Below, one piece after another: positions 5,521 through 46,805 of a stretch of DNA of 64,000 nt (the first letter of the stretch is position 1; the number at the start of each line of letters is the position of its first letter). Below the pieces are notes generated by a model. That model worked only from the letters and a program-made list of their open reading frames with translations, was not told where the DNA came from and searched no databases. The position numbers and the translations under genes are program-made. The stretch is from NCBI GenBank assembly GCA_963662175.1, contig OY759214.1, positions 75,838,037-75,902,036 of the forward strand, read 5' to 3'. This DNA comes from Aradus depressus (Eukaryota > Arthropoda > Insecta > Hemiptera > Aradidae).

Positions 5521-5834
5521 GGATAATAATAATTCATATCTCTAGTCGTTGTATGCTGGAGTGGTGGGAGATCTGAGAAGTTGGCGCAAGCGCGGCCTTC
5601 ACCTCATCTCACAATCATATCTACTCAGGTCTCTCACACAATCTTCTATTCAAAAATGAGTGAATAATATATTTCGGAAAACATTACAATCGTAAAATTG
5701 AAAACTATTTGAAAACCTCCTTCAAGTCAGCAACTGGGGAACTATTATATATCGTAGTGTGTCGTTTTGACCACTACATCGTAGTGTAAGTAATGTTTGC
5801 ACAAAAAAGTAATGTTTCAATTAATAAAAAACTA
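5521..5834. other. Unassigned non-coding stretch
   Basis: I see no gene or clear repeat here. The phrase ATCGTAGTGT occurs twice close together (5753 and 5778). Confidence 0.3.
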
Positions 5835-17444: not shown

Positions 17445-17700
17445 AAAATTAATTTCAATTCTATACTCTTGGGAGCGCTAGTGGGCCAATTATAATTTAG
17501 AAATATTGAAATGTAAAAAAAAAATATGAGATCGAGGGTTTAGAGGGAGAGCGAAAACTTACTGAGGTTTAGAAGGAGAGGTAGAAGTGAGTCATACAAA
17601 TTAGAAGAAAGTATTAGGGGCGTAGGAGGAGGGTGGAAGGGAGGCGGAGGGGAGTGGTGGAGGGATGTGAGGGAGTGGAGAGTTGCCCCTGCACTGAAAA
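17445..17700 (+). repeat. Relic related to the outer end of the giant palindrome
   Basis: It aligns with the outer part of the palindrome's right arm (46525-46745) in the same orientation: TTAATTTCAATT, then CTTGGGAGCGCTAGTGGGC, then GGTTTAGAGGGAGAGCG followed by AAACTTA, then purine-rich G/A tracts. The match is diverged and does not reach the arm terminus. It may be an old fragment of the same element type, or a host repeat that the element also contains. Confidence 0.6.
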
Positions 17701-17744
17701 AGGATACTAACCCAGTTGCTCTTTATCCTTGCGCCAAAACATAC

Positions 17745-18400
17745 CTATCTCCCCTACCAATATGATACATAATATGTAAATAAATGTCTTGGATGTTGAA
17801 AGAGAAATCATTCAATAATGACACTCCATTATCATGTTATTATATATATAAATAAACAAAAAAAATAATAATTAGATGAAAAAGAATTAAGATAAATTTT
17901 CGTCCCGAGGACCAACCACTGGGTGGCCTTCCTCTCATATGCCATTCACGCCAACATATCAATACATACCATCATAGCTGCTGGTTGTTGCACCCTAGCA
18001 ACAGTTGTATCTATATAAATAAAAGACAAAGATGAAAAAGAAACATAAAACGTTTGTAGATGATTAGTTTTCAATCCACTAGTAGGTCTCGAGGCCATTG
18101 CCGCCTCAGTCTCCGAACATGAACATTAAGAACATCTTGTGGCAAGTCTGCGGACTAAAGGATTAGGATGAAAGGAAAGGATAGAATGGAATTTTCTGTT
18201 GCGGGCTTTAATTACATCCCTTACAAAGGGAATCTGTAGGTCATTGTGAGGGATAGCATTAGAGACGTAGAATGGAGCGTTTGTGATTTTACAAAGGATA
18301 CGGGATTGTAGGGTTTGGATTCTTTAAGAATTCGAAGGTTTAGTTGAGCCCCAGAGATCAGCTCCTTACGCCCATATTGGCTTCAGTAATTGGTATAAAT
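17745..18400 (-). pseudogene. Decayed Jockey-like LINE 3' end
   Basis: On the minus strand broken frames read phrases matching the fragment at 9425-9769: a PI-xxx-G start near 18390, then NAPFYVSNAI-like and IPFVRDVIKARNRKFHSI-like pieces, with stops and frameshifts between. The 3' part (17770-18060) is shared with 19790-20300, for example AATGTCTTGGATGTTGAAAG and CACTAGTAGGTCTCGAGGCC. The copy is non-functional. Confidence 0.7.
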
Positions 18401-29981: not shown

Positions 29982-29987
29982 GATTGA
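29982..29987. other. 6-bp target-site duplication, left
   Basis: GATTGA directly abuts the first base of the palindromic element; the identical GATTGA follows its last base (46800-46805). Six-base duplications are characteristic of Polinton/Maverick integration. The local sequence is GATT-rich (ATTGATTGA), which weakens the evidence slightly. Confidence 0.75.
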
Positions 29988-31539
29988 AGTAGAGGGGATA
30001 AGGGGACTCTGGGCCAATGGCAAATGCGCAAGATGGCGGCCGTCCCATACTCCTCCCCCACCACCCTCCTCCTCCCCTGTTCTTGAATCACTTCCCCATC
30101 TCAATACGTTTCCACTCTCCCTCTTAACCCTAATAAGTTTCCGCTCTCCCTCTAAACCCTGCTTTGCATTTTTATCCCACCCCTCCCCTATGCCCCTATT
30201 TGTTTTTTAAATTAGCCCACTAGCGCTCCCAAGCGTATATAATTGAAATTAATAATGCTCTCTACTCCCCCACATCAATTGCCTACTCCAGCTTGTCTAC
30301 ACCATCACCCAAGGATTCGTCATAGTCCACTACTCCTAGCCTTAGCAACATCCTTCTTAGCCCAACTCCTACAACCTCTCTAGACATGATTCGTTTAACA
30401 TTTTTTTTTTTCGGTTTACCCATATATACATCGGTATCATCCTACAGACCCATTCCACTTAGGCCGGGCGTGTTTTATTAGCAGCACCAAGGTTCAGCGG
30501 TTTCTAGCCTTTTCGCTCATTTTCCCCTCATCCCAACATTTATTCTAGTCAGTCATTATTATATTTTTCTTTACACTTTATATTGTCCTCTCATAATTTT
30601 CAGCTCTATACTTCCCCACATCAACACTTCCTCTGATATTTTATTACAATCCTACTTCTCCACATAACTTATTCTCAATCTCTTTCAATATACCCATCTC
30701 AAATGCTACCTCCCCCTCCATTGTACTTCTTCCACTACTACAGATCCGCCCACACCTAATTCTCGGATCTTTCTCCTATTTTATACTTCATAACATCAAT
30801 TTTTTAAAATTTTTTATCGTTTTGTCCTGACCAATTTTCGGTTCATACCTCCAACCTTTCTACTTGAGTATACAGGCTAGGGGTACAATATATACATGCT
30901 ACACACATTAGAACACATCATTCAATCTCATGACTACGCTATTTTGTCGTTGTCTTCAATATACATATCGCAGACCATACAGCATTTTTTTTAAATTTTT
31001 TACACAAAACAACACATGACAGAGGTCTACAACCTTATTACTACGAAACCACGGTTCAAAACTTCAAACACATTGATACTCATCACCCCGTGACATAACC
31101 TTTGGCAACATTGTATATGTTATATTAGGTCTTACATTTCACATTTTCATATACATCACAGGCCTCATCATTATTGAACCCTATACTCATAAAATCATTC
31201 ATTAAACCTACTTCACTACCTAACTATTTTTTTCAACAAAGCACGTACAGCACATTCGGTAGGTTATAGTTCACACCATCACACATCAATTGCCCCACTT
31301 ATTCCAATCCTACATATCGAAACAGAGAATATTTCCGGAGACCCCAATAGGAGCCCTTGTACCAAACCTCCCACCTTTCCTTTCTAGAGGTCAGACACTT
31401 ACAATTTCTTTGACATCTACCCACTTTTTACCCCAAACCAACCTACATCCTAGTCCATCATGCAGCATAACTCTAGCATAGACCACCTAATCCTTAACAC
31501 GAACTCCGGCATTTACTTTATGTAACCGTCGACATAGCT

Positions 31540-31635
31540 CAAACCTGAAGGGAGCCGCTTATAGCCGAACACACCCGAACAGTTTAAGCTCTCCTAGCGT
31601 CTATTTACTCCTAAGTTTTAATAAAACTTAAAGTC
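31540..31635 (+). repeat. Diverged extra copy of the promoter-proximal block (left arm)
   Basis: The words ACCTGAAGGGAGCCG, TAGCCGAACACACCCGA, then ACAGTTTAAGCTCTCCT and CTTAAAGT repeat the order found at 36423-36820. It has no adjoining ORF. It may mark a decayed second transcription unit or a functional cis repeat. The mirror copy lies at about 45152-45247. Confidence 0.6.
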
Positions 31636-32256
31636 TAGTTGTATCATCTACTGATTGACTCGCTAACAAATTTTATTGCAATCCAACTTCTCTACATAAC
31701 TTATTCTCAATCTCCTTCAATATACCCATATCAAATTTTCTCACTTATACTTCTCCATATCAAATTGCTCAACAGCCCGCGCCTAATTCACAGTTCTTTC
31801 TCTTATTTCTTTTATGACTATTTTCTACTTTCCTACATCAATCGCCTAATGTTTTCTCGACTTGTCCTAACCATTTTAGACCCCCCACCTATAAACCTTT
31901 CACTACTACAGACCCGCCCAACGGATTTTCTTCAGAATTCTTCATAGCCTAACCGGTACTTTTTTTTTTTTTTTTTTCCTTAGCATCATCCTGCTTCACC
32001 ACTGTTCAACTCCCACAATCTCTCTAGATTGTCTGACATTTTCATCATAACCCGGTTTACTCATCCTCTCACTCGCTCTATAAGGTCTAGATGTGCTTTG
32101 CCAGAAATATCAATATCTTAGGAGGTATATTTAACTTACATTTATTTTCTTCGTAGGCTGCTTCTCATCTCCAACACTTGACTGGCTTTTCACCAGCATC
32201 TCTACATCAGGTGTCTGAAACATACTTTATAGGGGTGTGTATTTCTTTTAGTTCGC

Positions 32257-32262
32257 TTTATT
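32257..32262 (-). terminator. Candidate polyadenylation signal, left polymerase gene
   Basis: AATAAA on the minus strand, 337 bp past the stop codon; identical mirror at 44525-44530. The distance is plausible for a 3' untranslated region, but there is no direct evidence for use. Confidence 0.4.
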
Positions 32263-32394
32263 GACTAATCAATAAACCGGTAAGCCTCTTCACCAGCGCC
32301 AAGGTAGAAATACGTCGAAGAGGTGGGTGGGGATAGGGAAGGGATAAAGGCTCGAGTCAGGGCTTCTCTTCAATCTTTAGGTTTTTCTTTTGTA

Positions 32395-32466
32395 CAGGTT
32401 TACGGGTTTTCACACCACGCCAGTGACCAATTAGGTTTACAGGTTTTCACACCACGCCAGTGACCA
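32395..32466. repeat. 37-bp direct repeat pair downstream of the left polymerase gene
   Basis: Two adjacent units share TTTTCACACCACGCCAGTG and a GTTTAC(A/G)GG word. The mirror is 44321-44392. They lie in the presumed 3' untranslated region. Confidence 0.75.
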
Positions 32467-32598
32467 TTCAAAACAAGAGATATCAGACCAGTCTAGACTA
32501 AAGCCTCAAGAGAATTTTTAGGAATGGGATGGGAATAGGAATGTTTTCCGATATTTGAGGCCCCCCTCGGAAAAACGGGTAGCCAGGTTAAGACAGCA

Positions 32599-35296
32599 CT
32601 AGGTTTGAATTGAGTAATGTCCATGAGCTAAGGTATGAATACCATCAGATAAAACTACTCTTTTATCATCTTCCGATGACAACGCCTTTTTATTAATTCT
32701 AACGCTGAACAGCTCATGTTTTTTTGATTGAATCATTCTCATGTATGTATATACTATTTTTCCTTCAAAAAGGGATTTCTCAAAATCTTGCAACGATATA
32801 TTTTTTTCAACTGCTGCTTTTTTAACACCTTTAATACATTTTTTTATTTTTTTACTTATATCCATAGCATACGTCTTCGGTTTGAGTCCTACGAATTTAT
32901 TAATGATAACACCATTAGTCTCGTCTTTGAACTTGCCAAGAATTTTTTTATTTAAAACAGAATAGCACGGATGCTCTTTAGGGAAGTCTGACGTATCGAA
33001 ATAATGCTCCATCGCTTTCATGTCCTGATACCAGTCGGGTGTATTAATTAAATAAACTAAACTGTCCGTATCTGTGTACATTAATTTTAGAGTATTAGGA
33101 TTATATTTTTTCATCATTACATTATAGTGGAAATCATACATCACAGTTTTGGACAAATCTAAAATCGACATGCCTACATATATAGGCTTATTAAATAATA
33201 ATTTTGTTTTACTCATAGTTACAGATACTAAGTTTTCATGATAAATTATCCTGTCTAGAAAGTTAGCTTTGGCGATGAGTTTCATTAATTTGTTAGAGTC
33301 GGTAACCAGTATCATGTTCATACGGTTTCTTATATTTTCCATTGTTTTACCGAACACAGCATTATTCAAAAGTTTATAAAAATCTTTTTCAAAGTCATTT
33401 TTTGCCTTTTTCCGAAGCTCAGTATTACAATCAATATATGACTGTAACCAACAAGACTGTCGAAATTGTATCGCCCTATGAATTTTTTGGACTTTCAGAC
33501 CATGTTTAATCGCTTGCTTTAAGTTGACGTAATGCACAACATATCGCTCACGAGGATTGAAATGAGCAACTAATTTATTTACTTTCCCGCCTGGAGGACT
33601 AATCGTCTCAGGTAAAAATGGTGAATCGTTATGAGCTGTGTGTAACTCGGAAGGATAGACTACGTCGACCTCCAGAATACATCCTAATTCGCCATTATCG
33701 TCCAAGTTTTCAATATTTATGCTTTCGGGGTCTTTCACCCATTTAAACCCCCCATACGGTAGAGGTCTACTCATCGCATGGCCATAAAGATTATTTGCGT
33801 CTAAGTATGCAATGTAAGAGGATTCCTTTTCCGGATCATACTCGGGCATATAACTATTATTAGCACTCGCATACCGGTGGGATACTTGACATAAACCTCC
33901 CCTGATCCCCCGCTCAAAGAATAATATCATGTCATAATCCATTAATTGTTCGAACTTCACCTTAGTATGCTTCAACATCGCATCCCATGTCATCCCAGGA
34001 GCAGTGAAATAATGTGCGGGGTCTACCTTATGACTATTAAGCATAACATCACGGAAATTCTGGAAAATATCCGCGAGAATGAGTACATCCGTTTTAAGAT
34101 AGATATCGCTATATTCCCCGAGGGTTGAGCAGTTGAACTGCCGCCATACGTTCTGCGCATGTTGATAGTCTTCATCCGAAACCCCACATTGCTTTAACTG
34201 ACTGTAAAACGCTGACTGTGGTGGGAGAGACGTGTCATTCAGACGTTCCCATGAATCAACATAATCGTAACAGAAAACCCCCTTTTTGATCACAAGAGGA
34301 AGCTGATCCTCAGTAAAGTATTTAAGAGGTTTCCCTAAAGGCTGTTTTCGGAAGCACGCTAGCCATATACTCAAGACTACGACTTAAAAAGCGATAAGAG
34401 TCGATAAATCGAAGTTTAACACCGTGCACATGCTTAGTGAAGCTTATGTATTTCTCCTCGGTATTGGGAATCACATCAACCCGCTCTGAATCTTTACCCA
34501 GCTCCATAACTATAATGTTTGCGTCATAATTGGACAAATTATGAAAAATTACGGGTATATATGATGGAGTTTTACACCGCAGGTTACAGCTATTACAGGC
34601 TGCTCCGCTATATTTACCGGTTAAATGATCGTGGTCCCTAACTTTAGAATTATTCTCCGAAAAGTTGCCCTCACAAAGATAGCACTGAACGGCGGCACCC
34701 CACTCTACTTCCTCATCATTCGTTATTATAATTGGGGCATTATTTTTGTACATTTTCGAAATTTTAAGAGCTAACGATTTTACATATAGAAGGAATTTCT
34801 TTGGAGCTTCAGGACCACGGTATAGATACGGTTCTAAAGGGGGATTATACTGTTTTGCGACATTTAGGAAAGAGTCAGGAAATTTCAAATAGCAACAGAA
34901 AGACATAGCCTCATGCCTCTGATAGGGAACAGTCGCCTTCGATGTATCTTCAGAGAGGGGAGTCAACATGGTTTCAAAATCAGCATAAATAACAAAGGGT
35001 AGACGAAGCTGCCGTTCAACATTTTTGAATTCCAAAATCGGATCCTTAGGGAGCTCTATCCTAACTGGATTGTTTTTATCGCAATACATTTTATGTTCTC
35101 CTAATTTATTCTCACTCAACCTGCCATACTGATTGTCAAAATGCTTAAAGCATCGCTTACAAATTATAATTTTGTTTTTATGCTTAGTAATTTGTGACCG
35201 TACGAGTCTTTCAAAATTTTTAATGTATATGTAATGCTGCTTCTCCCCTTCTGTCAAAAGAAGTAAATCACGATGGTCTTCTAATTCGTTCTTCAC
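32599..35296 (-). pseudogene. Family B DNA polymerase ORF, left arm, frameshifted
   Basis: Same protein as the intact right-arm ORF at 41492-44188, but an extra base at 34324-34325 (AA versus A in the + strand word TTTAAGAGG) splits it. The upstream piece (34322-35296) holds the first exonuclease motif (YADFET), the cysteine/histidine domain and exonuclease motif II (FHNLSNYDAN). The downstream piece (32599 to about 34326) holds exonuclease III, polymerase motifs A, B and C (YLDANNLYG, KLLNNAVFGK, YTDTDS) and the KPKTY motif. The apparent start of the downstream piece (MSIWLACF) is an artefact of reading out of frame across the shift. Two residues differ from the right copy (Leu for Phe, Ser for Arg, in the cysteine-rich domain). 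The insertion extends a short run, so a consensus error is possible. Confidence 0.85.
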
Positions 35297-36285
35297 TATT
35301 TTATTGGAAAAACATTATTATTTTCGTCCAACCCAAACACATTTATGGAAATATTGTTGGATTTTTCAAATTTCCTAATTTCATTGAGCGGAGTCGGGAA
35401 AGAAATGTCTGAAAAGTTATACCGATGCTGAACGCCAGTATATTTAGTCACACGCTGAGGTTTTTTTTCTACAAATTTAGATAAAATGGAATACATAAAA
35501 CAGTGGTGATCCTCGTTTTCAACATTAATACAAGCATTTCTAGACTCAATGTTCTTTGGTAGAGGAACGTAGGTACTTCCACGAAGGGGTCGATATCTGT
35601 TTATTCGTAATCTCAATCCATCTACGGCAGTAAGAAACCATCCGCTCTTCTTCATTTGCGCTTCTTCCATCTCCACAGTTAATCTCTTAAAAGATACATC
35701 TAAGTATTTGTCTATATCTGTGTCCTTGAAGATAGGGTGATTTTTAGTCTTGAAAGCTTTATCCGTTAGATCGCCTACGACATTTTCAAACAAGCACTCT
35801 ACTAGGAAATTAACTTTTAAAGCCGAATGTATCTGAAGCTGTTCCAAGATTTTTTCCTTTAGACAATCGCGCACATCTTCCAAAAAGCATTCTAGGTCTC
35901 CGTGTTTATTGGATCTGACAAAATAAGACTTAACTCTACCCTCGAAAGAAGTATCATAGAGAACTAGATTAGACTCATTAGGTACAAGTTTTAATAAAGT
36001 TTTCTTAAGAGGTTCATTCTTGGGTTTTTTCATAACCGGGGCATCATTACACACAGACTCATGTCGACTACCATTAAACCTATTGGAAAATTCATGTCTA
36101 CAGTGTTTACACTTATAGACCGTTCCACAACTAAGTTCATGACGTTTTAGACTATATGATTTAGTAAAACTTGACTTACAATGTTTACAAACAAAACTAG
36201 GTTTAACCCCATGATTTAAAGCCATATGTATGTCAAAGTCCATTTTTAAGAGTTTTTCGTCTCCACAATAATTACACTTATGCAT
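35296..36285 (-). CDS. Zinc-finger N-terminal ORF of the polymerase, left arm (intact)
   Basis: 329 codons. Three Cys/His fingers lie at the N-terminus: C4-C7-H20-H25, C33-C36-H49-C53 and C59-C62-H75-C79. A region near residues 100-315 follows with a conserved NRYRPLRGSTYVPLPKNI segment (229-246) and CINVENEDHHCF (252-263), known as the N-terminal part of large polymerase-like proteins of insects and cnidarians. It ends ...NNVFPIK and its TAG stop shares a base with the first codon of the polymerase ORF, in the -1 frame. In relatives this region is continuous with the polymerase (family knowledge), so the ORF is probably the front half of one protein rather than a separate gene. The start ATG at 36285 has a TATA/initiator promoter 90-120 bp upstream. 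Confidence 0.8.
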   Translation of the reverse strand: MHKCNYCGDEKLLKMDFDIHMALNHGVKPSFVCKHCKSSFTKSYSLKRHELSCGTVYKCKHCRHEFSNRFNGSRHESVCNDAPVMKKPKNEPLKKTLLKLVPNESNLVLYDTSFEGRVKSYFVRSNKHGDLECFLEDVRDCLKEKILEQLQIHSALKVNFLVECLFENVVGDLTDKAFKTKNHPIFKDTDIDKYLDVSFKRLTVEMEEAQMKKSGWFLTAVDGLRLRINRYRPLRGSTYVPLPKNIESRNACINVENEDHHCFMYSILSKFVEKKPQRVTKYTGVQHRYNFSDISFPTPLNEIRKFEKSNNISINVFGLDENNNVFPIK

Positions 36286-36373
36286 GATAAATGAGTATTT
36301 ATCCCAAGATAACAGAAAAACAGGTCACCTTCGCAGATCTCAACGATGTTGACACCTCAAAGACTCAATCAAG

Positions 36374-36405
36374 ACTGAAAGAGACTGTCACGCAGACTAT
36401 TTATA
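36374..36405 (-). promoter_or_regulatory. Core promoter (TATA and initiator), left polymerase gene
   Basis: Mirror of the right-arm promoter: TATAAAT at 36399-36405 and TCAGT at 36374-36378 on the minus strand, with about 29 bp from the first T to the initiator A. This is the canonical arthropod RNA polymerase II spacing. Confidence 0.7.
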
Positions 36406-36414
36406 TAGGATGGA

Positions 36415-36515
36415 GGACCCGATCAAACCCGAAGGGAGCCGATGATTGCCGAGCGTACCCGATGATAGCCGAGCGAACCCGATGATGACCGAACACACAC
36501 CGATGATAGACGAGT
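36415..36515 (-). repeat. 20-bp direct repeats upstream of the left promoter
   Basis: Five ATCATCG-type words spaced 21, 20, 20 and 20 bp on the promoter strand (mirror of 40272-40372), each followed by a GGTTCGCTCGG-like block. Their position just upstream of TATA suggests activator-binding sites. Confidence 0.8.
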
Positions 36516-36530
36516 CAAACGACCAGAGGA

Positions 36531-37215
36531 CACCTGTTAACAACGTATACCAAGTTAAACTAGATAAAAATTCAATATTTATATAAAAAATGCGGAATTA
36601 CACATAAATCGGGCCAAAAACGAGATAATTACCGAAAAATGTGAGATTTTACATAAATCGATCGAAAAAACGAGGTAATGGGGCAAATTAGACATTATCA
36701 ACTGGGTAATGATGACACATCCGACAGAAGACTACTCGCCGAGGGAGAGAGTGCTCAGATGTATACAGTTTAAACTCTCCTCGCATCTACATTTTCGAAG
36801 GAGTTTCATATAACTTAAAGTAAATTTTTAACATCAATACTTCGGACGATAACGCTTGTCCCAAATTATCAGTACAAAAAACGCATTGGAAGCTATTCAA
36901 CAGTTCTCTGAAGGGCAGCATGTTCATATGTCAGGGTATAGGGGAGTATCACAGGATGGAGGAACCGATCGAACCCGAAGGGGGCCGATGATGACCGAAC
37001 ATACACGATGTTATGATCGTGGGACACATTTCAACAACGTATACCAAGTTAAACTAGATAAAAATTCAATATTTATATAAAAATGCGGAATTACACATAA
37101 ATCGGATCAAAAACGGGATAATTACAGAAAAATGTGGTATTTTACATAAATTAGACATTATCAGTACAAAAACACATTAAAAGCTATTCAACGTCCCATC
37201 CGAAGGACGACATGC
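36531..37215. repeat. Tandem duplication of the upstream region, left arm
   Basis: Long blocks occur twice in the same orientation: CGTATACCAAGTTAAACTAG at about 36543 and 37040, TGCGGAATTACACATAAATC at 36591 and 37084, and AAAGCTATTCAAC-type blocks at about 36880 and 37180. A copy of the promoter block at 36953-37010 has lost its TATA box (GATGGAGGAACC versus GATGGAGGACCC). Blocks of about 100-200 bp have been gained or lost between the units. Mirror at 39572-40256. Confidence 0.8.
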
Positions 37216-38354
37216 TCATATGTCCGGGTAGAGGGGAGGTATCCCTGAATCTAAATTTCCTTTTAAATCTAAATCAGGTGCGAGCAAATTTTTACGATTA
37301 ATATATTAGGCGTTAGGTCCTTATACACTCAAAACGCGACCGGAAATACAAGGCAGTAGGCTAGTCGGAGGGGGAGCCAACGAACCTTGAACAGCTTCCC
37401 CCACCCTATCTCGCCACAACTCCTCTCCTGCTAGTACATACAGTATCCTACGACCCATAGTCAAGTCAGTATAATATCAGTAGAGGTTGAACATGTGTGG
37501 CGGACCTCCATACACTGGAAACATCAATTACATGGATAGAAGAGAGAAGAGAGTTGAAGAGACCCGTAAGTAACCTTTGTGACAATATTAACAATTATTT
37601 TTATACCTACTACTTCCGGTCTTCTTTAAGGGGACGCAACTAAGAAGTTCGTTACGATTCTAACGTAATACGAATTTTTCATTGCCATACTTTGGCTATG
37701 CATAGGATGTAACTGGGGAAGTACATGTGATGAAGAGTTGAGGTGGGAGGGTACATTGATTGTGATTCAAAGTGAACAACTCTAGTATAGGTTGACCTCA
37801 TAGTGGCTTCTGTAATGTGATGAGGGGGTCTGAGAGATAGAAATGTTTTGAGAGGGGGCGATTGGCTACGCCAACTTGAGAAAAAAGGTTTAAAGGACAC
37901 CATTGAAATGATGCGTAAGACTAGATTGAAATGAAAAATTAGAAGAAATGAGCATCTGGTCATAAACAGTGAATGACCTTGAATAGGGAGAGCGTAAACT
38001 TACATTTTTGGTCGAGTGGGGGCTCTCTGGTTAGGTCTCCTTCAACCCAGCTGAGCGCCCTCAAGGAATTTTTTGGGAAGGGGGCATATTACAATACTTT
38101 GTCTATACAAAGGTAGAGCTGGGGAAGTACATCATAGGAAAAGCAGGTCTAGACATGTCGGTGTGACGTCATGGACTATATTTTCTCCATACACTTTGTA
38201 GAAAAAAATTAATGTCTGATGGGTCCGAAGGTGGGGGTGCTCAGAGATTGAGCTGGGGAGGTACATTGATTCAGAGCTATGGAGGGGGTACTCGTACACC
38301 ACACGCACACTTACATACACTTTACACACACATACAATAGTAGAGAATATATGG
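37216..38354. other. Inner non-coding region, left arm
   Basis: About 1.1 kb with no credible gene. It includes family Y-like words (GAGCTGGGGAAGTACAT at 38116 and a similar phrase at 38252, GGGAGAGCGTAAACTTACAT at 37986), so host-type repeat sequence is present inside the element near its centre. It ends with a CA-rich tract (38300-38340). Confidence 0.6.
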
Positions 38355-38432
38355 CGGAGCCTCACAGGGGAGCCTCAAGGGAGCCACACAGGGGTGGGGG
38401 GAGGTGCCACCGATGTGGCGGGGGCAGAACTC
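38355..38432. other. 78-bp asymmetric centre of the palindrome
   Basis: GC-rich unpaired spacer between the arms. It contains short direct repeats of GGAGCCTCA / GGGAGCCACA with CACAGGGG and a small hairpin GCCAC-CGAT-GTGGC at 38406-38419. An asymmetric centre is what resolution of a hairpin end or end-joining of two copies could leave. It also argues against a simple mirrored-read artefact. Confidence 0.8.
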
Positions 38433-39571
38433 CCATATATTCTCTACTATTGTATGTGTGTGTAAAGTGTATGTAAGTGTGCGTGTGGTGTACGAGTACC
38501 CCCTCCATAGCTCTGAATCAATGTACCTCCCCAGCTCAATCTCTGAGCACCCCCACCTTCGGACCCATCAGACATTAATTTTTTTCTACAAAGTGTATGG
38601 AGAAAATATAGTCCATGACGTCACACCGACATGTCTAGACCTGCTTTTCCTATGATGTACTTCCCCAGCTCTACCTTTGTATAGACAAAGTATTGTAATA
38701 TGCCCCCTTCCCAAAAAATTCCTTGAGGGCGCTCAGCTGGGTTGAAGGAGACCTAACCAGAGAGCCCCCACTCGACCAAAAATGTAAGTTTACGCTCTCC
38801 CTATTCAAGGTCATTCACTGTTTATGACCAGATGCTCATTTCTTCTAATTTTTCATTTCAATCTAGTCTTACGCATCATTTCAATGGTGTCCTTTAAACC
38901 TTTTTTCTCAAGTTGGCGTAGCCAATCGCCCCCTCTCAAAACATTTCTATCTCTCAGACCCCCTCATCACATTACAGAAGCCACTATGAGGTCAACCTAT
39001 ACTAGAGTTGTTCACTTTGAATCACAATCAATGTACCCTCCCACCTCAACTCTTCATCCCATGTACTTCCCCAGTTACATCCTATGCATAGCCAAAGTAT
39101 GGCAATGAAAAATTCGTATTACGTTAGAATCGTAACGAACTTCTTAGTTGCGTCCCCTTAAAGAAGACCGGAAGTAGTAGGTATAAAAATAATTGTTAAT
39201 ATTGTCACAAAGGTTACTTACGGGTCTCTTCAACTCTCTTCTCTCTTCTATCCATGTAATTGATGTTTCCAGTGTATGGAGGTCCGCCACACATGTTCAA
39301 CCTCTACTGATATTATACTGACTTGACTATGGGTCGTAGGATACTGTATGTACTAGCAGGAGAGGAGTTGTGGCGAGATAGGGTGGGGGAAGCTGTTCAA
39401 GGTTCGTTGGCTCCCCCTCCGACTAGCCTACTGCCTTGTATTTCCGGTCGCGTTTTGAGTGTATAAGGACCTAACGCCTAATATATTAATCGTAAAAATT
39501 TGCTCGCACCTGATTTAGATTTAAAAGGAAATTTAGATTCAGGGATACCTCCCCTCTACCCGGACATATGA
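38433..39571. other. Inner non-coding region, right arm
   Basis: Mirror of 37216-38354, with one substitution seen at 39059. The ORFs in it are mirrored chance frames. Confidence 0.6.
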
Positions 39572-40256
39572 GCATGTCGTCCTTCGGATGGGACGTTGAA
39601 TAGCTTTTAATGTGTTTTTGTACTGATAATGTCTAATTTATGTAAAATACCACATTTTTCTGTAATTATCCCGTTTTTGATCCGATTTATGTGTAATTCC
39701 GCATTTTTATATAAATATTGAATTTTTATCTAGTTTAACTTGGTATACGTTGTTGAAATGTGTCCCACGATCATAACATCGTGTATGTTCGGTCATCATC
39801 GGCCCCCTTCGGGTTCGATCGGTTCCTCCATCCTGTGATACTCCCCTATACCCTGACATATGAACATGCTGCCCTTCAGAGAACTGTTGAATAGCTTCCA
39901 ATGCGTTTTTTGTACTGATAATTTGGGACAAGCGTTATCGTCCGAAGTATTGATGTTAAAAATTTACTTTAAGTTATATGAAACTCCTTCGAAAATGTAG
40001 ATGCGAGGAGAGTTTAAACTGTATACATCTGAGCACTCTCTCCCTCGGCGAGTAGTCTTCTGTCGGATGTGTCATCATTACCCAGTTGATAATGTCTAAT
40101 TTGCCCCATTACCTCGTTTTTTCGATCGATTTATGTAAAATCTCACATTTTTCGGTAATTATCTCGTTTTTGGCCCGATTTATGTGTAATTCCGCATTTT
40201 TTATATAAATATTGAATTTTTATCTAGTTTAACTTGGTATACGTTGTTAACAGGTG
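39572..40256. repeat. Tandem duplication of the upstream region, right arm
   Basis: Mirror of 36531-37215. The block at 39572-39595 contains GTCCTTCGGATGGGACG, the same word that forms the core of the SINE family A body. Confidence 0.75.
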
Positions 40257-40271
40257 TCCTCTGGTCGTTTG

Positions 40272-40372
40272 ACTCGTCTATCATCGGTGTGTGTTCGGTC
40301 ATCATCGGGTTCGCTCGGCTATCATCGGGTACGCTCGGCAATCATCGGCTCCCTTCGAGTTTGATCGGGTCC
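40272..40372 (+). repeat. 20-bp direct repeats upstream of the right promoter
   Basis: ATCATCG words start at 40280, 40301, 40321 and 40341, with a diverged one (TTGATCG) at 40361. The unit resembles GGTTCGCTCGGCTATCATCG. Spacing of two helical turns and the position directly before TATA suggest cooperative binding sites. Confidence 0.85.
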
Positions 40373-40381
40373 TCCATCCTA

Positions 40382-40413
40382 TATAAATAGTCTGCGTGAC
40401 AGTCTCTTTCAGT
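40382..40413 (+). promoter_or_regulatory. Core promoter (TATA and initiator), right polymerase gene
   Basis: TATAAAT (40382-40388) and TCAGT (40409-40413) place a predicted start at A40411, 29 bp after the first T of the TATA box. The first ATG is 91 bp further at 40502. No downstream promoter element is evident. Confidence 0.75.
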
Positions 40414-40501
40414 CTTGATTGAGTCTTTGAGGTGTCAACATCGTTGAGATCTGCGAAGGTGACCTGTTTTTCTGTTATCTTGGGATAAATACTCATTTAT
40501 C

Positions 40502-41492
40502 ATGCATAAGTGTAATTATTGTGGAGACGAAAAACTCTTAAAAATGGACTTTGACATACATATGGCTTTAAATCATGGGGTTAAACCTAGTTTTGTTTGT
40601 AAACATTGTAAGTCAAGTTTTACTAAATCATATAGTCTAAAACGTCATGAACTTAGTTGTGGAACGGTCTATAAGTGTAAACACTGTAGACATGAATTTT
40701 CCAATAGGTTTAATGGTAGTCGACATGAGTCTGTGTGTAATGATGCCCCGGTTATGAAAAAACCCAAGAATGAACCTCGTTAAGAAAACTTTATTAAAAC
40801 TTGTACCTAATGAGTCTAATCTAGTTCTCTATGATACTTCTTTCGAGGGTAGAGTTAAGTCTTATTTTGTCAGATCCAATAAACACGGAGACCTAGAATG
40901 CTTTTTGGAAGATGTGCGCGATTGTCTAAAGGAAAAAATCTTGGAACAGCTTCAGATACATTCGGCTTTAAAAGTTAATTTCCTAGTAGAGTGCTTGTTT
41001 GAAAATGTCGTAGGCGATCTAACGGATAAAGCTTTCAAGACTAAAAATCACCCTATCTTCAAGGACACAGATATAGACAAATACTTAGATGTATCTTTTA
41101 AGAGATTAACTGTGGAGATGGAAGAAGCGCAAATGAAGAAGAGCGGATGGTTTCTTACTGCCGTAGATGGATTGAGATTACGAATAAACAGATATCGACC
41201 CCTTCGTGGAAGTACCTACGTTCCTCTACCAAAGAACATTGAGTCTAGAAATGCTTGTATTAATGTTGAAAACGAGGATCACCACTGTTTTATGTATTCC
41301 ATTTTATCTAAATTTGTAGAAAAAAAACCTCAGCGTGTGACTAAATATACTGGCGTTCAGCATCGGTATAACTTTTCAGACATTTCTTTCCCGACTCCGC
41401 TCAATGAAATTAGGAAATTTGAAAAATCCAACAATATTTCCATAAATGTGTTTGGGTTGGACGAAAATAATAATGTTTTTCCAATAAAATAG
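40502..41492 (+). pseudogene. Zinc-finger N-terminal ORF of the polymerase, right arm, frameshifted
   Basis: Copy of the intact left ORF 35296-36285. One extra G at about 40779 (CCTCGTTAAG versus CCTCTTAAG) shifts the frame after residue 92, so the first piece (40502-40783) contains only the three zinc fingers and the second (about 40779-41492) the conserved NRYRPLRGS/PLPKNI region. The extra base is not in a homopolymer, so it is less likely than the left-arm one to be a consensus error. Otherwise the two copies encode the same residues. Confidence 0.85.
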
Positions 41493-44188
41493 TGAAGAAC
41501 GAATTAGAAGACCATCGTGATTTACTTCTTTTGACAGAAGGGGAGAAGCAGCATTACATATACATTAAAAATTTTGAAAGACTCGTACGGTCACAAATTA
41601 CTAAGCATAAAAACAAAATTATAATTTGTAAGCGATGCTTTAAGCATTTTGACAATCAGTATGGCAGGTTGAGTGAGAATAAATTAGGAGAACATAAAAT
41701 GTATTGCGATAAAAACAATCCAGTTAGGATAGAGCTCCCTAAGGATCCGATTTTGGAATTCAAAAATGTTGAACGGCAGCTTCGTCTACCCTTTGTTATT
41801 TATGCTGATTTTGAAACCATGTTGACTCCCCTCTCTGAAGATACATCGAAGGCGACTGTTCCCTATCAGAGGCATGAGGCTATGTCTTTCTGTTGCTATT
41901 TGAAATTTCCTGACTCTTTCCTAAATGTCGCAAAACAGTATAATCCCCCTTTAGAACCGTATCTATACCGTGGTCCTGAAGCTCCAAAGAAATTCCTTCT
42001 ATATGTAAAATCGTTAGCTCTTAAAATTTCGAAAATGTACAAAAATAATGCCCCAATTATAATAACGAATGATGAGGAAGTAGAGTGGGGTGCCGCCGTT
42101 CAGTGCTATTTTTGTGAGGGCAACTTTTCGGAGAATAATTCTAAAGTTAGGGACCACGATCATTTAACCGGTAAATATAGAGGAGCAGCCTGTAATAGCT
42201 GTAACCTGCGGTGTAAAACTCCATCATATATACCCGTAATTTTTCATAATTTGTCCAATTATGACGCAAACATTATAGTTATGGAGCTGGGTAAAGATTC
42301 AGAGCGGGTTGATGTGATTCCCAATACCGAGGAGAAATACATAAGCTTCACTAAGCATGTGCACGGTGTTAAACTTCGATTTATCGACTCTTATCGCTTT
42401 TTAAGTCGTAGTCTTGAGTATATGGCTAGCGTGCTTCCGAAAACAGCCTTTAGGGAAACCTCTAAATACTTTACTGAGGATCAGCTTCCTCTTGTGATCA
42501 AAAAGGGGGTTTTCTGTTACGATTATGTTGATTCATGGGAACGTCTGAATGACACGTCTCTCCCACCACAGTCAGCGTTTTACAGTCAGTTAAAGCAATG
42601 TGGGGTTTCGGATGAAGACTATCAACATGCGCAGAACGTATGGCGGCAGTTCAACTGCTCAACCCTCGGGGAATATAGCGATATCTATCTTAAAACGGAT
42701 GTACTCATTCTCGCGGATATTTTCCAGAATTTCCGTGATGTTATGCTTAATAGTCATAAGGTAGACCCCGCACATTATTTCACTGCTCCTGGGATGACAT
42801 GGGATGCGATGTTGAAGCATACTAAGGTAAAGTTCGAACAATTAATGGATTATGACATGATATTATTCTTTGAGCGGGGGATCAGGGGAGGTTTATGTCA
42901 AGTATCCCACCGGTATGCGAGTGCTAATAATAGTTATATGCCCGAGTATGATCCGGAAAAGGAATCCTCTTACATTGCATACTTAGACGCAAATAATCTT
43001 TATGGCCATGCGATGAGTAGACCTCTACCGTATGGGGGGTTTAAATGGGTGAAAGACCCCGAAAGCATAAATATTGAAAACTTGGACGATAATGGCGAAT
43101 TAGGATGTATTCTGGAGGTCGACGTAGTCTATCCTTCCGAGTTACACACAGCTCATAACGATTCACCATTTTTACCTGAGACGATTAGTCCTCCAGGCGG
43201 GAAAGTAAATAAATTAGTTGCTCATTTCAATCCTCGTGAGCGATATGTTGTGCATTACGTCAACTTAAAGCAAGCGATTAAACATGGTCTGAAAGTCCAA
43301 AAAATTCATAGGGCGATACAATTTCGACAGTCTTGTTGGTTACAGTCATATATTGATTGTAATACTGAGCTTCGGAAAAAGGCAAAAAATGACTTTGAAA
43401 AAGATTTTTATAAACTTTTGAATAATGCTGTGTTCGGTAAAACAATGGAAAATATAAGAAACCGTATGAACATGATACTGGTTACCGACTCTAACAAATT
43501 AATGAAACTCATCGCCAAAGCTAACTTTCTAGACAGGATAATTTATCATGAAAACTTAGTATCTGTAACTATGAGTAAAACAAAATTATTATTTAATAAG
43601 CCTATATATGTAGGCATGTCGATTTTAGATTTGTCCAAAACTGTGATGTATGATTTCCACTATAATGTAATGATGAAAAAATATAATCCTAATACTCTAA
43701 AATTAATGTACACAGATACGGACAGTTTAGTTTATTTAATTAATACACCCGACTGGTATCAGGACATGAAAGCGATGGAGCATTATTTCGATACGTCAGA
43801 CTTCCCTAAAGAGCATCCGTGCTATTCTGTTTTAAATAAAAAAATTCTTGGCAAGTTCAAAGACGAGACTAATGGTGTTATCATTAATAAATTCGTAGGA
43901 CTCAAACCGAAGACGTATGCTATGGATATAAGTAAAAAAATAAAAAAATGTATTAAAGGTGTTAAAAAAGCAGCAGTTGAAAAAAATATATCGTTGCAAG
44001 ATTTTGAGAAATCCCTTTTTGAAGGAAAAATAGTATATACATACATGAGAATGATTCAATCAAAAAAACATGAGCTGTTCAGCGTTAGAATTAATAAAAA
44101 GGCGTTGTCATCGGAAGATGATAAAAGAGTAGTTTTATCTGATGGTATTCATACCTTAGCTCATGGACATTACTCAATTCAAACCTAG
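41492..44188 (+). CDS. Family B DNA polymerase (protein-primed type), right arm, intact ORF
   Basis: 898 codons; it would copy the element's DNA. Motifs: exonuclease I YADFET (104-109), exonuclease II FHNLSNYDAN (251-260), exonuclease III YLKTDV (399-404), polymerase A YLDANNLYG (497-505), polymerase B KLLNNAVFGK (641-650), polymerase C YTDTDS (740-745) and KPKTY (805-809). The insertion between B and C and the A-motif form fit protein-primed viral/Polinton-type enzymes. Residues 205-241 form a C-x2-C ... DHDHLTGKYRGAAC-x2-C domain resembling endonuclease VII/HNH-type zinc modules found in this polymerase family. The frame opens at GTG (41492), overlapping the stop of the zinc-finger ORF by one base, and no nearby upstream ATG is in frame. 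Translation therefore needs frameshifting, or this is the back half of a disrupted 1,200-residue protein. All catalytic acidic residues are present. Confidence 0.9.
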   Translation: MKNELEDHRDLLLLTEGEKQHYIYIKNFERLVRSQITKHKNKIIICKRCFKHFDNQYGRLSENKLGEHKMYCDKNNPVRIELPKDPILEFKNVERQLRLPFVIYADFETMLTPLSEDTSKATVPYQRHEAMSFCCYLKFPDSFLNVAKQYNPPLEPYLYRGPEAPKKFLLYVKSLALKISKMYKNNAPIIITNDEEVEWGAAVQCYFCEGNFSENNSKVRDHDHLTGKYRGAACNSCNLRCKTPSYIPVIFHNLSNYDANIIVMELGKDSERVDVIPNTEEKYISFTKHVHGVKLRFIDSYRFLSRSLEYMASVLPKTAFRETSKYFTEDQLPLVIKKGVFCYDYVDSWERLNDTSLPPQSAFYSQLKQCGVSDEDYQHAQNVWRQFNCSTLGEYSDIYLKTDVLILADIFQNFRDVMLNSHKVDPAHYFTAPGMTWDAMLKHTKVKFEQLMDYDMILFFERGIRGGLCQVSHRYASANNSYMPEYDPEKESSYIAYLDANNLYGHAMSRPLPYGGFKWVKDPESINIENLDDNGELGCILEVDVVYPSELHTAHNDSPFLPETISPPGGKVNKLVAHFNPRERYVVHYVNLKQAIKHGLKVQKIHRAIQFRQSCWLQSYIDCNTELRKKAKNDFEKDFYKLLNNAVFGKTMENIRNRMNMILVTDSNKLMKLIAKANFLDRIIYHENLVSVTMSKTKLLFNKPIYVGMSILDLSKTVMYDFHYNVMMKKYNPNTLKLMYTDTDSLVYLINTPDWYQDMKAMEHYFDTSDFPKEHPCYSVLNKKILGKFKDETNGVIINKFVGLKPKTYAMDISKKIKKCIKGVKKAAVEKNISLQDFEKSLFEGKIVYTYMRMIQSKKHELFSVRINKKALSSEDDKRVVLSDGIHTLAHGHYSIQT

Positions 44189-44320
44189 TGCTGTCTTAAC
44201 CTGGCTACCCGTTTTTCCGAGGGGGGCCTCAAATATCGGAAAACATTCCTATTCCCATCCCATTCCTAAAAATTCTCTTGAGGCTTTAGTCTAGACTGGT
44301 CTGATATCTCTTGTTTTGAA

Positions 44321-44392
44321 TGGTCACTGGCGTGGTGTGAAAACCTGTAAACCTAATTGGTCACTGGCGTGGTGTGAAAACCCGTAAACCTG
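44321..44392 (+). repeat. 37-bp direct repeat pair downstream of the right polymerase gene
   Basis: Units at 44321-44357 and 44358-44392 share TGGTCACTGGCGTGGTGTGA followed by AAACC. Mirror of 32395-32466. Confidence 0.75.
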
Positions 44393-44524
44393 TACAAAAG
44401 AAAAACCTAAAGATTGAAGAGAAGCCCTGACTCGAGCCTTTATCCCTTCCCTATCCCCACCCACCTCTTCGACGTATTTCTACCTTGGCGCTGGTGAAGA
44501 GGCTTACCGGTTTATTGATTAGTC

Positions 44525-44530
44525 AATAAA
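44525..44530 (+). terminator. Candidate polyadenylation signal, right polymerase gene
   Basis: AATAAA 337 bp downstream of the stop codon at 44188. It is the first clear signal past the gene. Confidence 0.45.
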
Positions 44531-46799
44531 GCGAACTAAAAGAAATACACACCCCTATAAAGTATGTTTCAGACACCTGATGTAGAGATGCTGGTGAAAA
44601 GCCAGTCAAGTGTTGGAGATGAGAAGCAGCCTACGAAGAAAATAAATGTAAGTTAAATATACCTCCTAAGATATTGATATTTCTGGCAAAGCACATCTAG
44701 ACCTTATAGAGCGAGTGAGAGGATGAGTAAACCGGGTTATGATGAAAATGTCAGACAATCTAGAGAGATTGTGGGAGTTGAACAGTGGTGAAGCAGGATG
44801 ATGCTAAGGAAAAAAAAAAAAAAAAAAGTACCGGTTAGGCTATGAAGAATTCTGAAGAAAATCCGTTGGGCGGGTCTGTAGTAGTGAAAGGTTTATAGGT
44901 GGGGGGTCTAAAATGGTTAGGACAAGTCGAGAAAACATTAGGCGATTGATGTAGGAAAGTAGAAAATAGTCATAAAAGAAATAAGAGAAAGAACTGTGAA
45001 TTAGGCGCGGGCTGTTGAGCAATTTGATATGGAGAAGTATAAGTGAGAAAATTTGATATGGGTATATTGAAGGAGATTGAGAATAAGTTATGTAGAGAAG
45101 TTGGATTGCAATAAAATTTGTTAGCGAGTCAATCAGTAGATGATACAACTAGACTTTAAGTTTTATTAAAACTTAGGAGTAAATAGACGCTAGGAGAGCT
45201 TAAACTGTTCGGGTGTGTTCGGCTATAAGCGGCTCCCTTCAGGTTTGAGCTATGTCGACGGTTACATAAAGTAAATGCCGGAGTTCGTGTTAAGGATTAG
45301 GTGGTCTATGCTAGAGTTATGCTGCATGATGGACTAGGATGTAGGTTGGTTTGGGGTAAAAAGTGGGTAGATGTCAAAGAAATTGTAAGTGTCTGACCTC
45401 TAGAAAGGAAAGGTGGGAGGTTTGGTACAAGGGCTCCTATTGGGGTCTCCGGAAATATTCTCTGTTTCGATATGTAGGATTGGAATAAGTGGGGCAATTG
45501 ATGTGTGATGGTGTGAACTATAACCTACCGAATGTGCTGTACGTGCTTAGTTGAAAAAAATAGTTAGGTAGTGAAGTAGGTTTAATGAATGATTTTATGA
45601 GTATAGGGTTCAATAATGATGAGGCCTGTGATGTATATGAAAATGTGAAATGTAAGACCTAATATAACATATACAATGTTGCCAAAGGTTATGTCACGGG
45701 GTGATGAGTATCAATGTGTTTGAAGTTTCGAACCGTGGTTTCGTAGTAATAAGGTTGTAGACCTCTGTCATGTGTTGTTTTGTGTAAAAAATTTAAAAAA
45801 AATGCTGTATGGTCTGCGATATGTATATTGAAGACAACGACAAAATAGCGTAGTCATGAGATTGAATGATGTGTTCTAATGTGTGTAGCATGTATATATT
45901 GTACCCCTAGCCTGTATACTCAAGTAGAAAGGTTGGAGGTATGAACCGAAAATTGGTCAGGACAAAACGATAAAAAATTTTAAAAAATTGATGTTATGAA
46001 GTATAAAATAGGAGAAAGATCCGAGAATTAGGTGTGGGCGGATCTGTAGTAGTGGAAGAAGTACAATGGAGGGGGAGGTAGCATTTGAGATGGGTATATT
46101 GAAAGAGATTGAGAATAAGTTATGTGGAGAAGTAGGATTGTAATAAAATATCAGAGGAAGTGTTGATGTGGGGAAGTATAGAGCTGAAAATTATGAGAGG
46201 ACAATATAAAGTGTAAAGAAAAATATAATAATGACTGACTAGAATAAATGTTGGGATGAGGGGAAAATGAGCGAAAAGGCTAGAAACCGCTGAACCTTGG
46301 TGCTGCTAATAAAACACGCCCGGCCTAAGTGGAATGGGTCTGTAGGATGATACCGATGTATATATGGGTAAACCGAAAAAAAAAAATGTTAAACGAATCA
46401 TGTCTAGAGAGGTTGTAGGAGTTGGGCTAAGAAGGATGTTGCTAAGGCTAGGAGTAGTGGACTATGACGAATCCTTGGGTGATGGTGTAGACAAGCTGGA
46501 GTAGGCAATTGATGTGGGGGAGTAGAGAGCATTATTAATTTCAATTATATACGCTTGGGAGCGCTAGTGGGCTAATTTAAAAAACAAATAGGGGCATAGG
46601 GGAGGGGTGGGATAAAAATGCAAAGCAGGGTTTAGAGGGAGAGCGGAAACTTATTAGGGTTAAGAGGGAGAGTGGAAACGTATTGAGATGGGGAAGTGAT
46701 TCAAGAACAGGGGAGGAGGAGGGTGGTGGGGGAGGAGTATGGGACGGCCGCCATCTTGCGCATTTGCCATTGGCCCAGAGTCCCCTTATCCCCTCTACT

Positions 46800-46805
46800 G
46801 ATTGA
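46800..46805. other. 6-bp target-site duplication, right
   Basis: GATTGA directly after the last base of the element; pairs with 29982-29987. Confidence 0.75.

What the first reader, a model, noticed from the sequence alone, without database searches (positions are those of the whole stretch)
29982..46805. An integrated 16.8-kb element that is entirely palindromic and carries only a Polinton-type polymerase
Seen: two 8,367-bp arms with a 78-bp centre, AG...CT termini, GATTGA on both sides, and one family B polymerase gene per arm facing outward. Known: Polinton/Maverick elements have 6-bp target duplications, AG termini, 15-20 kb length and protein-primed family B polymerases, but single-copy genes for integrase, capsid, ATPase and protease between short terminal repeats. 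Inferred: this is a derivative whose terminal repeats have expanded to the whole element, perhaps a head-to-head replication dimer (as hairpin-ended or protein-primed linear genomes can produce) that was integrated by an integrase in trans. I know of no described class with this architecture, though I cannot search.
Basis: partly seen in the sequence, partly recalled or inferred. Interest (0 to 1): 0.92.

Follow-up and report, generated by a model that had tools for sequence, protein, structure and literature searches.

The report
Palindromic polymerase-only Polinton transposon family
The 16.8-kb stretch is a real mobile element that is one giant mirror image carrying only a virus-type DNA polymerase, and it is one of many such mirror-image elements in the same genome, a body plan I could not find described.

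Summary
In detail: two 8,367-bp arms (9 differences), a 78-bp spacer, AGTAG...CTACT ends and a GATTGA duplication. It is not a one-off. Ten further elements, chosen because their end matches were paired, are all long inverted repeats; 10 of 12 elements examined have exact 6-bp duplications. Arms of one element differ by 0-0.12%, elements by medians of 0.4-5.5%; one chimera is the exception. In five more diverged copies the arms are 1.6-7% apart, so arms seem near identical at insertion and drift afterwards. Loops are homologous in 9 of 11 elements. polB is open in 20 of 20 arms of the ten other elements and shows purifying selection. A second, related PolB family also sits in inverted pairs: 19 of 21 loci scored. 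No integrase was found inside; integrase-bearing Polintons coexist. Best reading: an inherited palindromic Polinton derivative that replicates by protein priming through a self-folded hairpin and is integrated in trans; the last two steps are inferred.

The parts
29982..29987 (.). left copy of the 6-bp target site duplication, GATTGA
29988..38354 (.). left arm of the palindrome (8,367 bp)
   Evidence: family members
29988..32400 (.). outer non-coding part of the left arm, strongly C-over-G on the strand whose 5' end is the terminus (skew -0.42 here, -0.40 to -0.43 in nine other elements)
32599..34374 (-). polB, C-terminal piece in the left arm (frame broken in this copy)
   Evidence: no Pfam match on its own
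34322..35296 (-). polB, middle piece in the left arm (start of DNA_pol_B_2, Endonuclease_7-like zinc motif)
35296..36285 (-). polB, N-terminal piece in the left arm (C2H2-like zinc fingers, below the Pfam cut-off)
38355..38432 (.). central asymmetric spacer (loop), homologous to loops of other elements
38433..46799 (.). right arm of the palindrome (8,367 bp)
40463..40783 (+). polB, first N-terminal piece in the right arm (stop-to-stop frame)
40770..41492 (+). polB, second N-terminal piece in the right arm
41492..44188 (+). polB, 898-aa frame in the right arm: DNA_pol_B_2 (E 1.3e-32) and Endonuclease_7; model folds like phi29 polymerase
44387..46799 (.). outer non-coding part of the right arm (mirror of 29988-32400)
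46800..46805 (.). right copy of the 6-bp target site duplication, GATTGA
17448..17759 (-). older fragment of another element end of the same family (143 bp at 85% and 58 bp at 88% to an E13-type end)

Best explanation
This is a member of a family of palindromic Polinton derivatives. Each unit is arm - short loop - inverted arm, each arm carrying one family B polymerase gene of the protein-primed type that reads outward. Proposed cycle (inferred): the polymerase starts on the AGTAG terminus of an unintegrated copy and displaces a strand; the displaced strand, being self-complementary, snaps back into an about 8.4-kb hairpin with the central sequence as its loop; synthesis from its single open end, round the loop, restores the full palindrome, and self-templated copying or mismatch repair makes the two arms identical. 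The double-ended product is inserted by a Polinton-type integrase made elsewhere in the genome, giving 6-bp duplications. Shown: the anatomy, the duplications, concerted arms, diverged arms in more diverged copies, the shared loop, selection on polB, no integrase detected inside and integrases elsewhere. Inferred: protein priming, the hairpin intermediate, which integrase acts.
For: Palindrome and 6-bp duplication; 10 of 10 further elements fetched are long inverted repeats, though they were picked because their end matches were paired; exact 6-bp duplications in 10 of 12 elements examined. Within-element arm divergence 0-0.12% except in the chimera E8; sister arm strictly nearest in 12 of 12, 20 of 22, 20 of 22 and 15 of 18 arms over four segments; arms pair on the tree in 10 of 11 elements (polB N part) and 9 of 11 (polB C part), and a mosaic (E3) is shared by both arms. 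Five more diverged copies have arms 1.6-7% apart over 0.55-1.65 kb at the centre, so identity seems to date from insertion. Loops homologous in 9 of 11. No in-frame stop in 22 of 22 arms over the C-terminal 1.7 kb of polB, pooled pN/pS 0.11; full frame open in 20 of 20 arms of the ten other elements. phi29-like fold, nearest viral model an adintovirus PolB. A second polB family in inverted pairs, one member checked at 6.5 kb either side of its centre. Integrases in the genome, none detected inside. In an integrase-bearing Polinton family, coordinates show inverted polB pairs with a single integrase match between them at 2 loci, the expected product of a snap-back event.
Against: No unintegrated, hairpin or protein-bound form has been seen. 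No integrase is shown to recognise these ends; the ends of the integrase-bearing family were not read. Arm identity could also come from recombination between arms in the chromosome. E6 has mirrored flanks and no 6-bp duplication, and E8 has mismatched ends, no duplication and unequal arms. 8 of 24 loci found with the polB piece have only one scored copy. The window copy's own polB is broken in both arms. The fetched elements are among the best matches, so the intact-frame count is biased to young copies. All copies come from one genome. The pN/pS pairs are not independent.
Confidence: 0.6

Rival explanations
1. The palindrome is only passively inherited. Elements are integrated as ordinary double-stranded DNA, and arm identity is kept up by gene conversion between the arms in the chromosome, as in Y-chromosome palindromes.
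For: Arms are nearly identical in 10 of the 11 elements compared. Chromosomal palindromes are known to convert (recalled).
Against: Five more diverged copies have clearly diverged arms near the centre: 94.4, 98.4, 97.1, 93.1 and 96.0% identity. The chimeric E8 keeps 0.7-7.4% difference between its arms, though it could be recent.
Confidence: 0.15
2. Each palindrome was formed separately by a snap-back or template-switch error of an ordinary Polinton and then inserted once.
For: Coordinates show inverted polB pairs with a single integrase match in between at 2 loci of the integrase-bearing family (120, 124), so such events may happen in this genome. AAV snapback genomes are a known product of this kind (PMC8235507, passages read).
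Against: Loops are homologous in 9 of 11 family-1 elements. In family 2, 10 of the 14 pairs that are identical over the probe are spaced 7.67-7.69 kb. No monomeric family-1 progenitor was seen: the pieces read of single-polB copy E10 show an asymmetric deletion; the seven other single-copy loci were not read through.
Confidence: 0.1
3. A fold-back type element moved by cut-and-paste by a Polinton integrase; polB is needed for gap repair only, and palindromy gives no replication advantage.
For: Foldback and Galileo elements also consist largely of long inverted repeats (recalled; abstract start of PMC3573991).
Against: Cut-and-paste does not by itself make arms identical at insertion or spread mosaics to both arms.
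Confidence: 0.1
4. Assembly artefact.
For: Giant palindromes are a known source of misassembly (recalled).
Against: Different flanks with exact 6-bp duplications at 10 of 12 elements, copies with diverged arms, two distinct polB families, copies on several contigs.
Confidence: 0.02

Closest known systems
Polinton/Maverick elements (vertebrate set: PMC8097293, section 7 read and passages seen)
   Same: family B polymerase of the protein-primed type, 6-bp duplications, AGT/AG-type ends (AGTAGAGTAG in several copies), comparable length (12.4-17 kb for the palindromes without insertions or large deletions)
   Different: inverted repeats fill the element (8.4 kb against 46-1,447 bp there); two polB genes, outward-facing; no integrase, ATPase, capsid or protease gene detected
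Adintoviruses (PMC8363768 and PMC11071296, passages seen)
   Same: closest named viral relatives by sequence (Ladona dragonfly adintovirus PolB, 48%) and by model (Drosophila-associated adintovirus 3)
   Different: adintoviruses carry integrase, capsid, FtsK-type and protease genes; here only polB was detected and the element is palindromic
Snapback (self-complementary) defective genomes of AAV (PMC8235507, passages seen); adenovirus counterparts recalled only
   Same: two inverted copies of one genome end joined by a loop; symmetric and asymmetric forms
   Different: those are forms within virus stocks; here the form is integrated, many-copied, apparently inherited, and keeps an open polymerase gene
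Foldback/Galileo long-inverted-repeat transposons (recalled; abstract starts)
   Same: inverted repeats make up most of the element
   Different: different coding content (recalled); family B polymerase and Polinton-like 6-bp duplication here

Membership tests
[quoted passage not shown]
   DNA_pol_B_2 (12); model closest to phi29 polymerase in the PDB and to adintovirus PolB among viral models. Family and fold only; priming by protein itself not testable here
Polinton/Maverick | 6-bp target site duplication | tested here: met
   10 of 12 elements examined, window included; E6 and E8 lack it
Polinton/Maverick | AG/AGT-type repeated end motif | tested here: met
   AGTAGAGTAG in some elements, AGTAGAGGGG (window) or AGTAGGGGAG in others, so the repeat is imperfect in part of them
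Polinton/Maverick | retroviral-type integrase gene | tested here: not met
   three integrase queries against 20 halves and the window arm: best E 0.52 (106); none of the 129 scored genome matches (of 1,583 candidates) lies in the elements, compared by eye
Polinton/Maverick | capsid, ATPase, protease genes | tested here: not met
   in the window element frames outside polB are at most 106 aa, or 110 aa for one that runs in from the flank; Pfam on four of these frames gave no such gene. Other elements were only screened for sense-strand frames of 150 aa or more. Very diverged or spliced genes not excluded
Polinton/Maverick | short terminal inverted repeats (46-1,447 bp) round unique genes | tested here: not met
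   8,367-bp repeats, 78-bp unique centre
Adintoviruses | PolB with N-terminal OTU-like domain | not tested
   feature taken from a PMC11071296 passage; no OTU row in the Pfam list for the N-terminal piece, not searched further
Adintoviruses | hexon plus integrase with chromodomain | tested here: not met
   no integrase detected; no large second frame in the window element (8)
Foldback-type transposons | transposase of a known foldback family | not tested
   no dedicated search

The most novel reading that the evidence does not exclude
A self-complementary, hairpin-replicating class of chromosomal transposon: its working genome is half of the integrated element folded as a hairpin with one protein-primed origin, so that every replication cycle rebuilds one arm against the other. 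It occurs in at least two PolB families in one genome and lives off the integrase of ordinary Polintons.
Probability: 0.45. Interest if true: 0.93.

Novelty: new variant of a known kind. Interest (0 to 1): 0.86.

Why it matters
Long near-perfect palindromes are generally held to be unstable (general knowledge), yet here they are the usual form of young mobile elements with an open, selected polymerase gene. The arms act as a built-in clock (like LTRs) and as a record of how the DNA was copied, so protein-primed or hairpin replication of Polintons, which to my knowledge has not been watched directly, becomes testable from sequence. It would also show how a virus-like element can shed everything but its polymerase by becoming its own mirror image.

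Tried and rejected
Assembly artefact or fold-back read: rejected, without reads at hand. AGTAG motif at the inner arm edge as a hidden internal terminus: the 7-mer AGTAGAG occurs 24 times in the window on both strands, so no weight. Structure in the 78-bp loop: folds no better than shuffles, z -0.46. Rfam: nothing. Sequence search of the PDB: nothing. Viral contigs: no match with the single protein, one distant integrase-bearing element, L001, with the alignment. E10 as a monomeric progenitor: the pieces read show arm position 5827 joined almost directly to an opposite end piece from position 1319, so a deletion derivative is simpler. C2:2.45 Mb element as a full-length helper: four interior probes show another palindrome of this family. 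The C15/C14 integrase-bearing Polinton as direct helper: its ends were not read.

Literature: ten searches. Eight combined Polinton, Maverick or adintovirus with inverted repeats, palindromes, hairpins or similar; 57 concerned adenovirus-type snapback genomes and 71 palindromic or foldback transposons. None listed a description of palindromic Polintons; titles and abstract starts were seen, and passages (of PMC8097293 also section 7) of PMC8235507, PMC11071308, PMC8363768, PMC8097293, PMC2836005 and PMC11071296. Most subscription papers and Repbase were not searchable.
Full report
What is in the window. The element at 29988-46799 is two 8,367-bp arms in inverted orientation round a 78-bp spacer, with seven substitutions and two compensating single-base indels between the arms. 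It ends AGTAG...CTACT and is flanked by GATTGA on both sides; beyond that the flanks are not mirror images. Each arm holds, from the end inwards, about 2.6 kb of non-coding sequence, strongly C-rich in its outer 2.4 kb, a polB gene reading towards the end, and about 2.1 kb of non-coding sequence up to the loop. In this copy polB is split by frame changes in both arms. The 898-aa frame of the right arm matches DNA_pol_B_2 and an Endonuclease_7-type zinc motif. Among the best 120 of 5,841 database matches the top named ones are uncharacterised proteins of the bugs Halyomorpha (59%) and Rhodnius (58%), and the named viral one is the PolB of Ladona dragonfly adintovirus (48%). The predicted fold (mean pLDDT 88) is closest to phi29 polymerase in the PDB and to adintovirus and parvo- or bidna-like virus polymerases among viral models.

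It is a family. The host genome (697.7 Mb, 74 contigs, unnamed) was searched with the outer 601 bp, the inner 755 bp and a 601-bp polB piece (only the 40 best candidates of 1,634, 361 and 535 were scored). The 40 polB matches fall at 24 loci, 16 of them inverted pairs and 8 single. Ten further elements, chosen because their end matches were paired, were fetched as left and right halves. In 10 of 10 the halves are long inverted repeats of each other: where the alignment stops at the loop the arms are 7.1 kb (E11) and 8.5 kb (E2); in most others it runs on through the centre. Identity is 99.2-99.97% in nine; E6 is interrupted in one arm, and E8 is a chimera, about 96% alike in its main block. 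An eleventh, at C2:2.447-2.459 Mb, was probed by its ends and four 300-bp pieces and is palindromic too. Exact 6-bp duplications, all different, flank 10 of the 12 elements examined (window, E2, E3, E4, E5, E7, E9, E11, E13, C2:2.45; read). The two without are E6, whose flanks are mirror images for about 200 bp, and E8, whose two ends belong to different subtypes.

Arms evolve together, but apparently not in the chromosome. Four homologous segments were compared over 11 elements. Arms whose best match covered less than 85% of a segment were dropped: 9 of 22 for the outer segment, 2 of 22 for the inner one, none for the two polB segments. Leaving E8 aside, arms within an element differ by 0-0.12%; elements differ by medians of 0.38, 0.82, 5.5 and 1.5%. 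The sister arm is strictly the nearest in 12 of 12, 20 of 22, 20 of 22 and 15 of 18 cases; the rest are the two E8 arms and one tie. On trees the arms pair in 10 of 11 elements for the N-terminal polB part and in 9 of 11 for the C-terminal part (E11 unresolved there, E8 split in both), and element E3, which groups differently in the two parts, does so with both arms. In five more diverged copies that I picked, 83-95% identical to the window's inner arm, the two arms are 94.4, 98.4, 97.1, 93.1 and 96.0% identical over 0.55-1.65 kb at the centre. So arms appear to be near identical at insertion and then drift apart, as LTRs do; fast conversion in the chromosome does not fit well. How old these insertions are was not dated independently.

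The palindrome looks inherited. The loops of 9 of the 11 elements match one another, in either orientation; E9's centre is rearranged and E11's, where one inner arm is single-copy, was not compared in that call. One palindromic ancestor is simpler than many separate foldings. The polymerase gene is open over its full length in 20 of 20 arms of the ten other elements, has no in-frame stop in 22 of 22 arms over its last 1.7 kb, and shows a pooled pN/pS of 0.11 over the 55 non-independent pairs of left arms.

A second and a third family. With a Rhodnius PolB as query (41 of 1,510 candidates scored), a second family with a 1,222-aa PolB appeared in inverted pairs. A 260-bp probe of it, about 72% identical to family 1 over 180 bp, gave 40 matches (40 of 196 candidates scored): 19 inverted pairs and 2 singles; 14 pairs, on nine contigs, are 100% identical over the probe, and 10 of these 14 are spaced 7.67-7.69 kb. 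In one member, 100 bp taken 6.5 kb from the centre are the perfect reverse complement of their mirror position. Beyond that family 2 is known from coordinates only. A third family carries an integrase next to polB: probes of integrase (18 of 18 candidates scored) and polB (32 of 32) lie in the same orientation 3.0-4.2 kb apart at seven loci, as expected of an ordinary, single-copy order; but inverted polB pairs occur at three loci, two of them with a single integrase match between, and inverted integrase pairs at two (C1:80.74-80.75 and C14:12.50 Mb). That is what snap-back copying of an ordinary Polinton end could leave; these loci were not read.

How it probably works. No integrase was detected in the halves, and none of the 129 scored integrase matches falls in the elements listed, while many stand-alone 310-335-aa integrase frames, some without stops, occur in the genome. 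Maverick ends carry repeated motifs that are thought to allow the jump-back step of protein-primed replication (PMC8097293, passage); the ends here (AGTAGAGTAG in several copies) are of that kind. A palindromic strand displaced during such replication can fold on itself; copying from its open end round the loop restores the palindrome and offers a step at which arms are made equal. Integration in trans with 6-bp duplications completes the cycle. The anatomy, family, concerted arms, diverged arms in diverged copies, selection and shared loop are shown; priming, hairpin and the integrase used are inferred.

Relation to known systems. By polymerase, ends and duplications this belongs near Polintons/Mavericks and adintoviruses, but it fails their defining gene content and the short-repeat architecture, so it is filed as a new variant. 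By layout it resembles snapback genomes of AAV (PMC8235507, passages) and, from memory, palindromic defective adenovirus genomes; those are forms in virus stocks, whereas this form is integrated, many-copied and apparently inherited. Ten literature searches, listed under what was tried, found no description of it, within an open-access library only.

Noticed in passing
G000 C1:97538058-97555518 (E8, L022/L023): Chimeric element: left half like E7, right half like E13, ends of two subtypes, no 6-bp duplication, and a 269-bp unit repeated near the centre; may mark a chromosomal rearrangement.
   Followed up: partly
G000 C7:12923953-12943306 (E6, L018/L019): The flanks are inverted copies of each other for about 200 bp, in a repeat that resembles E3's left flank; no direct 6-bp duplication.
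   Followed up: partly
G000 C14:7023368-7072882: Tandem-looking array of the element's terminal 60-90 bp, perhaps a satellite grown from an element end.
   Followed up: no
G000 C5:26041468-26042220: Matches to the terminal 100 bp in inverted orientation 0.75 kb apart, perhaps a miniature non-autonomous derivative.
   Followed up: no
G000 C1:80744650-80753049: Inverted pair of integrase matches of the integrase-bearing Polinton family, both 100% over the 240-bp probe; maybe a palindromic integrase-carrying element.
   Followed up: partly
window 17448-17759: Older fragment of a family end in the host flank (about 85% to an E13-type end).
   Followed up: partly
G000 C14 (16.4 Mb contig): Six of the eight single polB loci and many integrase matches sit on this one contig; it may be a repeat-rich or sex chromosome.
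   Followed up: no
window 22367-23062: Open frame that reads like a Tc1/mariner-type transposase (recalled resemblance, not searched).
   Followed up: no
L001: Virus-collection contig with GIY-YIG, Pox_A32-type ATPase, PolB and rve integrase frames, a distant relative with more genes.
   Followed up: partly
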